Shown here: piece after piece, positions 6,903 through 25,106 of the stretch
How positions within the stretch are numbered: position 1 is the first letter of the stretch
How the letters are laid out: the number at the start of each line of letters is the position of its first letter
Source of the DNA: Synechococcus sp. Nb3U1
GTDB lineage: Bacteria > Cyanobacteriota > Cyanobacteriia > Thermostichales > Thermostichaceae
Direction: 5' to 3'
Length of the DNA: 64,000 bases
Assembly (NCBI RefSeq): GCF_021533835.1
Contig: NZ_JAKFYQ010000002.1
Location: forward strand, 310,001 to 374,000
The notes under the pieces: generated by a model
Told to the model about the DNA's origin: nothing
Database searches by the model: none
What the model saw: only the letters and a program-made list of their open reading frames with translations
Program-made: the position numbers and the translations under genes

Positions 6903-7952
6903 ATGTCTCCAATCCCTTCCCTTCAGCCTCTTCTCCCTCAACAGAGCGGGATCCCGTGCTTGGACATCACCCCTTTTCGGGAAGGGACAGATCCGCTGGG
7001 ACTAGCCAAGGCGTTCGGGGCCGCCCTGGAGCAGGTGGGGTTTGTGATCATTACAGGCCACGGGATCCCAGAGGAGATAATCCAAACCGCTTACGACAAG
7101 GTGCTGGCCTTCTACGATCTGCCCCTAGACCAGAAGATGCTGGTGGCCATTCCAGATCGGGTGAAAAATCGGGGGTATCTACCGATTGGTATCGAAAGTG
7201 TGGCTGCTACCCGTGGAGCAGAAATTCCCTACGGTGACCCTCCGGGTCGTGCGGAGCACGATCTCTGTGAAGCCCTGGTATTTAACGACCTGTTTCGGGA
7301 AGATCTGCAACGGCCTCAGGCAGGATGGGATCCCGACTCTGGTAACCTTTGGCCCACCTATCCAGCGGGATTGCGGGCAGCCCTGCTCACCTACGATGCA
7401 GCCTTGCTGGGGCTCACTGAAACCTTAATGCGCATCAGCGCCCTGGCATTAGACTTACCAGAAACCTATTTTCTGCCCTTTATGGAGGGGAAAGGGGGAG
7501 TGCTGCGGGCGGTGCATTATCCCGAACAAGAGGTGGAACCGAGACCAGGGCAATTGCGCTACGGCGCTCACTCCGACTACGGCGGCTTTACCCTTCTGCG
7601 GCAAGATGGGGCACCGGGGGGACTACAGATATACTCCAAGTCAGCGGAGTGGATCGATGTGCAGGCCGTTCCCAACTCCTTTGTCATCAACATTGGCGAT
7701 TTGCTGGCCCGTTGGACAAATGACCGTTGGCGCTCTACAGTGCACCGGGTGGTGAACCCCCCCAGAGAGGCTTTCGGCGCGAGCCGCCGTCTATCCTTAG
7801 TTTATTTTACGGCCCCCCGCGATGATGCTTGGATCGAATGCTTGCCCACTTGCCAGGATGCAGGCAATCCCCCTCGCTATGCCCCTGTACGGGCCGGGGA
7901 ATATATCCGCTCTAAGTTGGATATCTCGATGATTGGGGAGAGAAGGCACTAA
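6903..7952 (+). CDS. 2-oxoglutarate/Fe(II)-dependent oxygenase, isopenicillin N synthase family
   Basis: About 349 residues with the family's two domains: an N-terminal DIOX_N-like part (VGFVIITGHGIP, YDLPLDQK) and a C-terminal jelly roll. Counting from the upstream GTG at 6894, the iron triad is His226 and Asp228 in AHSDYGG plus His284 in STVHRVV; Arg299 and Ser301 in RRLSL bind the 2-oxoglutarate carboxylate. All catalytic residues are present, so it should be active. The substrate is unknown. A second member lies at 47614-48585. The stop overlaps the convergent cyclase-like gene by four bases. Confidence 0.9.
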   Translation: MSPIPSLQPLLPQQSGIPCLDITPFREGTDPLGLAKAFGAALEQVGFVIITGHGIPEEIIQTAYDKVLAFYDLPLDQKMLVAIPDRVKNRGYLPIGIESVAATRGAEIPYGDPPGRAEHDLCEALVFNDLFREDLQRPQAGWDPDSGNLWPTYPAGLRAALLTYDAALLGLTETLMRISALALDLPETYFLPFMEGKGGVLRAVHYPEQEVEPRPGQLRYGAHSDYGGFTLLRQDGAPGGLQIYSKSAEWIDVQAVPNSFVINIGDLLARWTNDRWRSTVHRVVNPPREAFGASRRLSLVYFTAPRDDAWIECLPTCQDAGNPPRYAPVRAGEYIRSKLDISMIGERRH

Positions 7953-8959
7953 AAACGAGACCAAGCCCGCAGCCATTCCCGTAGCGTTTCCAACCATCCA
8001 GTCGGCTGTGTGGCTGCCCAAGGGGATCCCGTGGCCGAGTCTTCATGTGGGAGAAAATTGGTCTGTCCGGGAGGTACTGCATAAACCCGAATGGGCTTGG
8101 CGTTGGGAGAGGGTTTCACTGGGTGCGCCTGCACGTGTGAGAGTTGTTCCCTCACCGCTTGATACACAGGTGTGGATAGCAGCAACTGGGAACTGAGCTC
8201 CACATTGGCTGACTCCAACCAGGTGGCAAAATTCACCGACTTGCCAAAGGCGGAAACCCGCTGTGGGTCTTGAGGATCGATATTGAGCAAAATCGTGGGC
8301 CCGTAGTGGATCCCGAGGGTGAGGTTGACCTCTGGGTAAGAGAGTTCCCGCAGAGTGGTGTTCAGATCCGCCACCGACTCTAGAAGGGCCAGCCCGGTTT
8401 GCAGGGCTTGTTGTACTGCTGTCTGAGGATGCTTGAGGCCAAAAAGAGCCAGGCTTTTGAAGCCGTTGTGGCTGGTCAATACCCCCTGATACTGCTTTAC
8501 AAGCGCACCCATTTGGGTGAAATAGCGGCCCAAGGTATAGACAATATCGTAGGGAAAGTGTTCTTCGTCGAAGGTGGCCATTCCCCGTAGGGAGGCGCTG
8601 AGGATGGCGGCTGGGACTCGGCTACCGATGGAATGAGCCCGCAATTGATGTTGGGCCACCTCTACATCTTCACTGTCGATCACCAACCGCTGTAGGGTAA
8701 CATCCCCGGTAATGCGAGTTTGACAGGCTAGCCGGATGTGCACAGGCAGATCCAGCCGTTCCGCCAATTTTTTCTCGGCAGGGGTCATGATGCGGCAATG
8801 TTCACTGCCTTCTAGGATCATGATGCGACAGGTGGAGCAGGCTGCATTTCCTCCACAGGCATGGGCATGGCGTACCCCCGCATCGAGCAAGTTCTCTAAG
8901 ACGCTGCGTAGGGGGTCGGCCTCAAATACGAGGTTGTCAGGGCGACAGGTAATCTGCAT
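7949..8959 (-). CDS. [2Fe-2S] ferredoxin domain fused to degenerate class III nucleotidyl cyclase domain
   Basis: Residue numbers count from a possible TTG start at 8974; the ATG at 8959 is five codons later and preferred. Residues 6-95 are a plant-type ferredoxin domain with cluster ligands Cys40, Cys46, Cys49 and Cys84. Residues about 115-300 match the class III adenylate/guanylate cyclase fold, with GIHYGPTILLNI and AFGKSVNFATWLE aligning to conserved strands. Both metal-binding Asp positions are lost (SASLRG instead of F.D..G; NGFKSLA instead of GD) and the transition-state Arg is Trp in FATWLE. It is probably a redox-sensing pseudocyclase rather than an active enzyme; that role is inference. 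Confidence 0.8.
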   Translation of the reverse strand: MQITCRPDNLVFEADPLRSVLENLLDAGVRHAHACGGNAACSTCRIMILEGSEHCRIMTPAEKKLAERLDLPVHIRLACQTRITGDVTLQRLVIDSEDVEVAQHQLRAHSIGSRVPAAILSASLRGMATFDEEHFPYDIVYTLGRYFTQMGALVKQYQGVLTSHNGFKSLALFGLKHPQTAVQQALQTGLALLESVADLNTTLRELSYPEVNLTLGIHYGPTILLNIDPQDPQRVSAFGKSVNFATWLESANVELSSQLLLSTPVYQAVREQLSHVQAHPVKPSPNAKPIRVYAVPPGQTNFLPHEDSATGSPWAATQPTGWLETLREWLRAWSRF

Positions 8960-9096
8960 AGTTGGAGCTAGCAAAAGATACTTTCAAGAACACCTAATAA
9001 CGAGTACGGAGCTGCCTCCGGTTTGGATACGTTTTTCCTCAACTGGCCGCCACAACTCAGATGATAGAGTACAGAAAAGTCTGCGCGAGCCCTTTC

Positions 9097-9939
9097 ATGC
9101 CTCAGTCCAAACCCGAAGAATCACCGATCCGCAAAATATTTAAAACCCTGGTGTTGGTGATTGGCCCGCTGATCTTGCTCAGTTTCTCCTTTGGCCCGCT
9201 GTTGCAGGCCTTTGGGCCCTCCAGTTCGGCAGATACCAGCTTGATCACCGAGCAACTGCAAACGGAGGCCGATGGCTATCGAGCCGTGCTGGAACGGGAG
9301 CCGGATAACCGTATTGCCTTGGAGGGCTTGATCAACACCCAACTGCAACTGAACGAGCCACAGGGGGCGATCGAGCCGCTGCTTAAGTTGGTGGAGCTAG
9401 AGCCTGAAGATCGAGGCCTGCGGGGCTTTTTGGCGCAAATCCAGCAGGAAACCGGCGACTTTGAAGGGGCGCTAGAGCAGCTTCAGATCCTCTACGAAGA
9501 GGATCCCCGCAACAGCCAGGTTCTGGAGGAGCTCGCCAATACTCAGATGATTTTGGGCCGCAACTCAGAGGCTATCGCCCTGTTGGAAAATCACCTCAAG
9601 GAGGTGCCGGAAGACAATGATGCCCGTCTACGATTGGCCTTTGTCTATGCCCGTGACAACCAGACTGACCAGGCGATCGCCCTTTATGACGAGATGATCG
9701 CGGTGGATCCCAGCGATTTTACGCCTGTGTTAGGCAAAGCCATGGCCCTCAGTTCTGCGGCAGATGAAGACCTACGGGCACAAGCGCCAGAGCTATTTGA
9801 TCAGGCCGCCCGCTTGGCCCCACCCCAAATTCGGGAGCAGATCGAGCAGCAGGCCGCGCTCTATGCCCAGTCGAACCAACCTCAACCTGTCGAGAGTTCT
9901 GTGGATAGTGAAGACCCTGAGCTTACTCCCGCCCCATGA
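9097..9939 (+). CDS. membrane-anchored tetratricopeptide-repeat protein
   Basis: The ATG at 9097 gives 280 residues. A single membrane helix near residues 15-40 (FKTLVLVIGPLILLSFSFGPLL) is followed by about five TPR-like units between residues 60 and 245, with recurring patterns such as GAIEPLLKLVELEPED, GALEQLQILYEEDPRN and QAIALYDEMIAVDPSD. The tail is acidic and Pro-rich. TPR proteins scaffold complexes, and this one probably faces the cytosol or thylakoid/periplasmic lumen from one anchor. The next gene overlaps the stop by four bases (ATGA), so the two are cotranscribed and translationally coupled. An in-frame ATG at 9061 would add 12 residues. Confidence 0.8.
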   Translation: MPQSKPEESPIRKIFKTLVLVIGPLILLSFSFGPLLQAFGPSSSADTSLITEQLQTEADGYRAVLEREPDNRIALEGLINTQLQLNEPQGAIEPLLKLVELEPEDRGLRGFLAQIQQETGDFEGALEQLQILYEEDPRNSQVLEELANTQMILGRNSEAIALLENHLKEVPEDNDARLRLAFVYARDNQTDQAIALYDEMIAVDPSDFTPVLGKAMALSSAADEDLRAQAPELFDQAARLAPPQIREQIEQQAALYAQSNQPQPVESSVDSEDPELTPAP

Positions 9940-25032: not shown

Positions 25033-25106
25033 TCGGGATGACAGGATTTGAACCTGCGGCCCTCTGCTCCCAAAGCAGATGCGCTACCAAGCTGCGCTAC
25101 ATCCCG
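25033..25106 (-). tRNA. tRNA-Pro (anticodon TGG)
   Basis: The minus strand folds as a full cloverleaf of 74 bases: acceptor CGGGATG pairs with CATCCCG, the anticodon arm is TCTGC-TTTGGGA-GCAGA with anticodon TGG, and the T arm carries GGTTCAAATCC. No CCA is encoded. The flanks 24933-25032 and 25107-25236 contain no gene I can support. Confidence 0.97.

What the first reader, a model, noticed from the sequence alone, without database searches (positions are those of the whole stretch)
7949..8959. Ferredoxin domain fused to a cyclase domain that has lost its catalytic residues
A plant-type [2Fe-2S] domain with all four cysteines precedes a class III cyclase fold whose two metal Asp positions and the transition-state Arg are replaced. 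Such a protein cannot be an ordinary cyclase. A redox-gated nucleotide sensor or a partner for an active cyclase is plausible.
Basis: partly seen in the sequence, partly recalled or inferred. Interest (0 to 1): 0.55.

Follow-up and report, generated by a model that had tools for sequence, protein, structure and literature searches.

The report
Ferredoxin fused to a dead cyclase
This cyanobacterial gene makes an iron-sulfur (redox) domain joined to a cyclase domain that has lost its catalytic residues, and it belongs to a conserved family found across many cyanobacteria, so it is probably a redox-linked pseudoenzyme rather than a decaying gene.

Summary
The minus-strand ORF (conserved ATG at 8959, possible TTG at 8974, stop at 7949) has a four-cysteine [2Fe-2S] domain and a class III cyclase fold (best Z 24). 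Both metal Asp positions (Ser128, Phe172) and the catalytic Arg (Trp252) are replaced; the Asn (N248) remains. One detail is wrong: the cysteine spacing and best matches are ISC/adrenodoxin-like, not plant-type.

It is not an oddity of one genome. Of 54 full-length relatives collected from 388 genomes of the class, 29 lack both metal Asps and 25 keep them. The 29 form one side of a branch (100/99), also on the ferredoxin domain alone (95/85). They share a new Asp (29/29 versus 0/25) and Cys10 (26/29 versus 0/25). The gene is under purifying selection (dN/dS 0.06-0.19); its cyclase part is less constrained than in the intact sisters.

The best reading is a redox-linked pseudo-cyclase, derived from a ferredoxin-gated cyclase, whose folded cyclase domain now acts by binding a protein. 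Catalytic pairing with an active cyclase, and nucleotide sensing, are less likely: Asn plus Arg survive in only 12 of 29, and other nucleotide-contact positions drifted. Partner and function are untested. I found no paper describing it.

The parts
7949..8974 (-). whole ORF, ferredoxin-pseudocyclase (341 aa from TTG 8974; 336 aa from the conserved ATG 8959)
   Evidence: homologues begin at or near the ATG
8708..8941 (-). [2Fe-2S] ferredoxin domain (Fer2), aa 12-89, ISC/adrenodoxin-like spacing C40-x5-C46-x2-C49-x34-C84
   Evidence: Pfam 39.1 bits; TIGR02007 40.5 bits, below cut-off; E. coli Fdx 1i7h E 9.8e-8
8609..8674 (-). linker helix region aa 101-122 between the two domains
   Evidence: helix in the model; D103 conserved in both subfamilies; aligned
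8135..8608 (-). class III cyclase-fold domain, aa 123-280, catalytic residues lost
   Evidence: Pfam 38.4 bits; fold search Z up to 24.1
8591..8593 (-). S128, at the position of metal-binding Asp a
   Evidence: D in 25 of 25 intact sisters, 0 of 29 in this clade
8459..8461 (-). F172, at the position of metal-binding Asp b
   Evidence: D in 25 of 25 intact sisters, 0 of 29 in this clade
8219..8221 (-). W252, at the position of the transition-state Arg
   Evidence: R in 25 of 25 intact; in this clade R 19, W 6, other 4
8231..8233 (-). N248, retained catalytic Asn position
   Evidence: N in 18 of 29 of this clade, 25 of 25 intact
8567..8569 (-). D136, clade-specific invariant Asp in the loop after the first metal position (motif FDExNFPYD)
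   Evidence: 29 of 29 versus 0 of 25
8945..8947 (-). C10, extra cysteine typical of the dead clade
   Evidence: 26 of 29 versus 0 of 25
8795..8797 (-). C60, fifth cysteine of the ferredoxin domain, invariant in both subfamilies
   Evidence: 54 of 54

Best explanation
A redox-linked pseudo-cyclase. The ancestor was most likely a soluble ferredoxin-gated class III cyclase of the kind still present as the intact sister group. In this clade the cyclase domain lost catalysis once (inferred from one branch) but stayed folded. The proposed working mode is that the [2Fe-2S] domain takes up or gives electrons according to the cell's redox state; its change of state passes through the conserved linker to the cyclase-fold domain; and that domain, probably as a dimer, acts by binding a protein partner instead of making cAMP or cGMP. 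Shown here: domains, fold, loss of metal Asps and Arg, clade, purifying selection, clade-specific fixed residues. Inferred: cluster assembly, dimerisation, redox coupling, protein-binding output.
For: Fold kept despite the losses. One-branch clade of 29, recovered with the ferredoxin domain alone. Purifying selection: whole-gene dN/dS 0.059-0.187 in 10 of 10 dead-clade pairs; cyclase part 0.042-0.217 in the 9 of 10 pairs not saturated. New fixed positions in the cyclase part (D136, F140, Y213) and in the ferredoxin part (C10, P77, H79) point to changed function rather than decay. Cluster cysteines and C60 invariant in 54 of 54. Linker aligned in both groups.
Against: No partner identified: no conserved gene neighbourhood beyond the genus level. 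The cyclase domain is less conserved than in the intact sisters (mean identity 0.42 versus 0.64 on thinned sets of 19 and 22), which a passive tail would also give. The gene is absent from 2 of 8 genomes of the window's family, one of them a single-contig genome, and one Synechocystis record keeps only the ferredoxin part. Redox activity and dimerisation were not testable.
Confidence: 0.4

Rival explanations
1. Half-site partner or regulator of an active class III cyclase: it forms a heterodimer, for example with the FHA-domain cyclase found in every genome of the window's family, and makes that enzyme redox-sensitive. In its strict form it supplies Asn and Arg as the C2 half of mammalian adenylyl cyclase does; in its loose form it only competes for or modulates dimers.
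For: The metal Asps are lost while Asn is kept in 18 and Arg in 19 of 29, a C2-like pattern. FHA-cyclase (FHA + Guanylate_cyc) in 8 of 8 family genomes and 28 of 29 genomes with the dead gene (listing, counted by eye; the 29th, G014, has a 653-aa class III cyclase ORF). In G057 the FHA-cyclase is the only PF00211 match found apart from the dead gene itself.
Against: Asn and Arg are both kept in only 12 of 29, 8 of these being close Pseudanabaena copies; the window protein has lost Arg. The FHA-cyclase is also in genomes without the gene (G068, G101), in 251 of 388 overall, and in 23 of 25 genomes with the intact ferredoxin-cyclase, so the co-occurrence is not specific.
Confidence: 0.22
2. A ferredoxin electron carrier with a folded but functionally vestigial cyclase tail; the tail only stabilises or dimerises the ferredoxin.
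For: Ferredoxin domain equally conserved in dead and intact clades (0.58 versus 0.60) while the cyclase domain is relaxed (0.42 versus 0.64). One Synechocystis record keeps only an 88-aa ferredoxin ORF. In Pseudanabaena (L063-L069, L095) the gene lies in a same-strand cluster; in L063 this includes a GMC oxidoreductase and a glyoxalase-family gene.
Against: The cyclase part is still under purifying selection (0.042-0.217) and carries clade-wide fixed new residues; a useless tail should not.
Confidence: 0.22
3. A redox-gated nucleotide or cyclic-nucleotide sensor: the old active-site cleft binds a nucleotide without turning it over.
For: Fold and G244 region kept; base-contact Thr present in 14 of 29, Asn in 18 of 29.
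Against: Both metal sites gone in 29 of 29; the Lys near the C terminus that is constant in the thinned intact set is mostly lost; an acidic residue (D136) is fixed in the loop where the triphosphate would lie by analogy with active cyclases (recalled); base-site positions vary.
Confidence: 0.12
4. Pseudogene or annotation artefact.
For: Cyclase catalytic residues lost; gene missing in 2 of 8 family genomes.
Against: Open frame in 29 genomes of 8 families as labels them, low dN/dS, clade-specific conservation.
Confidence: 0.03

Closest known systems
Intact soluble ferredoxin-cyclases of cyanobacteria (25 members here) and three Roseivirga proteins
   Same: Fer2 + Guanylate_cyc order, about 305-390 aa ORFs; in the 25 cyanobacterial members also the same cysteines incl. 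C60
   Different: They keep both metal Asps, Asn and Arg (25 of 25; Roseivirga sequences read); the 25 lack D136 and C10; they have N, V or I instead of Lys at the position 4 before metal Asp b
Proteobacterial class IIIb adenylate cyclases with a 6TM cytochrome-b-like anchor and a ferredoxin domain (PMC4821796; passages read)
   Same: Ferredoxin joined to a class III cyclase
   Different: Those have a membrane anchor and are treated there as cyclases; here the ferredoxin starts at residue 12, there is no anchor, and the catalytic residues are gone
C2-type catalytic halves of heterodimeric class III cyclases (mammalian adenylyl cyclase C2; recalled)
   Same: Metal Asps missing, Asn and Arg kept in part of the clade
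   Different: Both Asn and Arg kept in only 12 of 29, and Arg lost in the window protein; no dimer evidence
ISC/adrenodoxin-type ferredoxins (E. coli Fdx 1i7h; TIGR02007)
   Same: Cysteine pattern and domain similarity
   Different: Score far below the TIGR02007 cut-off (40.5 versus 132.1); fused domain; fifth cysteine at position 60

Membership tests
Class III nucleotidyl cyclase fold (PF00211) | Profile match over the curated cut-off and the cyclase fold | tested here: met
   38.4 bits versus 21.9; Z 24.1/23.3/22.5 to CyaB/CyaC/Cya2
Active class III cyclase | Two metal-binding Asp residues | tested here: not met
   S128 and F172; 0 of 29 in the clade versus 25 of 25 sisters
Active class III cyclase | Transition-state Arg and catalytic Asn | tested here: not met
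   N248 kept, Arg replaced by W252
Active class III cyclase | Cyclase activity | not testable with these tools
   needs purified protein
[2Fe-2S] ferredoxin (Fer2, PF00111) | Profile match and four cluster cysteines | tested here: met
   39.1 bits versus 21; C40, C46, C49, C84 in 54 of 54
ISC ferredoxin equivalog TIGR02007 | Score over the curated cut-off | tested here: not met
   40.5 versus 132.1 bits
6TM-ferredoxin class IIIb cyclases (PMC4821796) | Six-helix membrane anchor before the ferredoxin | tested here: not met
   Fer2 begins at residue 12; no room for an anchor
C2-like heterodimer half | Asn and Arg both retained | tested here: not met
   window protein N yes, R no; both in 12 of 29 of the clade
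C2-like heterodimer half | Forms a heterodimer with an active cyclase | not testable with these tools
   no complex prediction or binding assay available

The most novel reading that the evidence does not exclude
Cyanobacteria carry a conserved family of ferredoxin-pseudocyclases in which a redox-to-cyclic-nucleotide switch was rebuilt into a redox-to-protein-binding switch: the dead cyclase dimer reports ferredoxin-level redox state to a partner, perhaps through a second thiol switch of C10 and C60.
Probability: 0.3. Interest if true: 0.65.

Novelty: new variant of a known kind. Interest (0 to 1): 0.45.

Why it matters
Ferredoxin-cyclase fusions are known, but a clade-wide loss of catalysis with retained fold and selection gives a natural pseudoenzyme pair, dead and intact, sometimes in the same genome (G191, G318). 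That makes two questions testable: whether a ferredoxin domain gates a cyclase, and what a cyclase fold does once it stops making cyclic nucleotide. Annotation that calls these proteins cyclases on domain content would overcount cyclase capacity in cyanobacterial genomes.

Tried and rejected
Plant-type ferredoxin: rejected on spacing and matches. Pseudogene: rejected on selection and conservation. Conserved operon partner: a neighbourhood comparison of 31 dead-clade stretches (30 with a hit; L069 and L094 are the same place, L098 holds only the ferredoxin fragment) and 18 intact stretches found families of neighbours shared next to the gene only within genera: a divergent TPR gene in the window's genus (W, L059, L060, L086) and a same-strand cluster in Pseudanabaena. 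Specific link to the FHA-cyclase: 28 of 29 versus 23 of 25 for the intact form, so not specific; the Fisher values ignore kinship. A single-sequence related-loci scan found nothing. A second structure job (Roseivirga, single sequence) gave pLDDT 33.7 and was not used. Distances between C10 and C60 could not be measured because the model's coordinates are not given.

Literature. Searches. No paper on a ferredoxin-pseudocyclase was found in this open-access library. The single hit, PMC4284462 (outline and passages read), is a false lead: the 'inactive adenylate cyclase domains' are two-hybrid reporter halves. Two cyanobacterial second-messenger reviews (PMC10117731, PMC4284465; passages only) and a 2026 redox review (PMC13421787; passages only) do not mention such a protein in the passages searched. 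That Synechocystis sll1161, called adenylate cyclase in PMC3899235 (passage), belongs to this clade is my recollection-based guess and was not tested.

Limits and dropped rows. The 388-genome search scored at most 5 candidates per genome and used a dead-clade query, so intact members may be undercounted. It gave 62 matching genomes: 52 with the 54 full-length members, G258 with a ferredoxin fragment (dropped from counts), and 9 matching in the cyclase domain only (dropped). L002 is the same gene as L004 and was dropped. A second search of 386 genomes of the phylum with L013 as query showed 17 matching genomes, four of which (G495, G502, G594, G607) were new; these were not added to the counts. 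Sorting into dead and intact was by the metal Asps themselves; D136, C10 and the ferredoxin-only tree are the independent checks. The trees are unrooted. Conservation figures use 19 and 22 thinned members. The FHA counts were read by eye from the listing. L145 fell out of the FHA-cyclase alignment (7 of 8 aligned). The catalytic roles of individual class III residues are recalled knowledge.

Full report
What is there. The finding lies in a minus-strand ORF, 7949-8974 from a TTG or 7949-8959 from the ATG that most relatives share. Residue numbers here count from the TTG. Pfam places Fer2 at aa 12-89 and Guanylate_cyc at aa 123-280, both over their cut-offs. The window lies in a 3.49 Mb genome with three class III cyclase-domain genes: this one, a 655-aa ORF (L001) and an FHA-domain cyclase (L003). 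Named full-length relatives are cyanobacteria, apart from three Roseivirga.

Catalytic residues. Aligned with its intact sisters and with Synechocystis Cya2, the two metal Asps are Ser128 and Phe172 and the transition-state Arg is Trp252; Asn248 is kept. The motifs around these positions align without gaps, so the residues are not displaced nearby. The predicted structure (20-sequence alignment, pLDDT 82.9, pTM 0.75) is a class III cyclase fold: Z 24.1 to CyaB, 23.3 to CyaC, 22.5 to Cya2, and Foldseek agrees. The ferredoxin's cysteine spacing and matches are ISC/adrenodoxin-like, not plant-type. The model's residues 36-40 (around the cluster) are of low confidence.

It is a family. A search of 388 genomes of the class gave 54 full-length relatives in 52 genomes. 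They fall into two sets: 29 with neither metal Asp and 25 with both. On a maximum-likelihood tree of 57 rows (the 54 and three Roseivirga) the 29 are one side of one branch, support 100/99. The tree from the ferredoxin domain alone, which does not contain the sites used for sorting, gives the same split at 95/85, and 95/77 without the C10 column. Positions not used for sorting separate the sets: D136 in 29 of 29 versus 0 of 25, C10 in 26 of 29 versus 0 of 25. C60, a fifth cysteine, is in 54 of 54. G191 and G318 carry one of each kind, so the two can coexist.

It is kept, but with a changed task. Whole-gene dN/dS is 0.059-0.187 in ten dead-clade pairs; the cyclase part is 0.042-0.217 in the nine pairs that are not saturated; the C-terminal tail is looser in most. 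On thinned sets the ferredoxin domain is equally conserved in both (0.58 and 0.60), the cyclase domain less so in the dead clade (0.42 versus 0.64). Some positions became fixed or nearly so in the dead clade only (D136, F140, Y213, P77, H79). This fits a folded domain with a different, looser constraint, not a decaying one.

What it is not likely to be. For catalytic help in a heterodimer it would need Asn and Arg; both survive in 12 of 29, eight of them close Pseudanabaena copies, and the window's own family has Trp for Arg in 6 of 6. For nucleotide binding, metal sites are gone, the Lys near the C terminus and the base-contact positions vary, and an Asp is fixed in the loop after the first metal position. 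Another class III cyclase is present in every genome that has the gene (28 of 29 an FHA-cyclase, the other a 653-aa ORF), but FHA-cyclases are common (251 of 388) and accompany the intact form about as often (23 of 25), so this does not single out a partner. Gene neighbours are conserved only within genera. In the window's family 6 of 8 genomes have the gene.

Mechanism. My best reading (0.4) is a redox-linked pseudo-cyclase: [2Fe-2S] state, passed through the linker, changes what the cyclase-fold domain binds. Shown: anatomy, fold, losses, clade, selection. Inferred: cluster, dimer, coupling, output. Rivals: non-catalytic or catalytic partner of an active cyclase (0.22), ferredoxin with a vestigial folded tail (0.22), nucleotide sensor (0.12), pseudogene (0.03).

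What is known. Ferredoxin-cyclase fusions are in print as proteobacterial 6TM-ferredoxin class IIIb cyclases (PMC4821796, passages). Ten searches of the open-access library found no paper on the dead form; most subscription papers are not covered. I therefore call it a new variant of a known kind. A side result is that the intact sisters have Asn, Val or Ile where the window genome's other cyclases have Lys, the base-selecting position of adenylyl cyclases (role recalled), so their product is also open.

Noticed in passing
L028-L045, L047-L050, L052, L054, L055 (intact sisters): At the position 4 before metal Asp b, where the window genome's other two cyclases have Lys, the 25 intact ferredoxin-cyclases have N (14), V (10) or I (1), with Thr at the partner position; their substrate is uncertain.
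   Followed up: partly
   Followed up: partly
L075, L076, L077 (Roseivirga): Bacteroidota carry intact ferredoxin-cyclases on a long branch among the cyanobacterial intact ones, possibly a transfer.
   Followed up: no
L063 7973-13051 and other Pseudanabaena loci: The gene sits in a same-strand cluster with a glyoxalase-family gene, a GMC oxidoreductase and unassigned genes.
   Followed up: partly
window 9061-9939 (+): A TPR protein is transcribed away from the gene across an 86-base gap (8975-9060); the pairing is kept in L059, L060 and L086.
   Followed up: partly
L060 8452-10281 (-): In relatives G029, G004 and G057 (L060, L086, L085) the convergent downstream neighbour is one family, a nitrite/sulfite reductase by Pfam on L060, where the window has a 2OG-Fe(II) oxygenase overlapping the stop by four bases.
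   Followed up: no
intact members, between query aa 112 and 113: Most intact members have a few extra linker residues that the dead clade and intact L029 and L034 lack.
   Followed up: no
window 25033-25106 (-): The only tRNA (Pro, TGG) and only Rfam match in the window.
   Followed up: no
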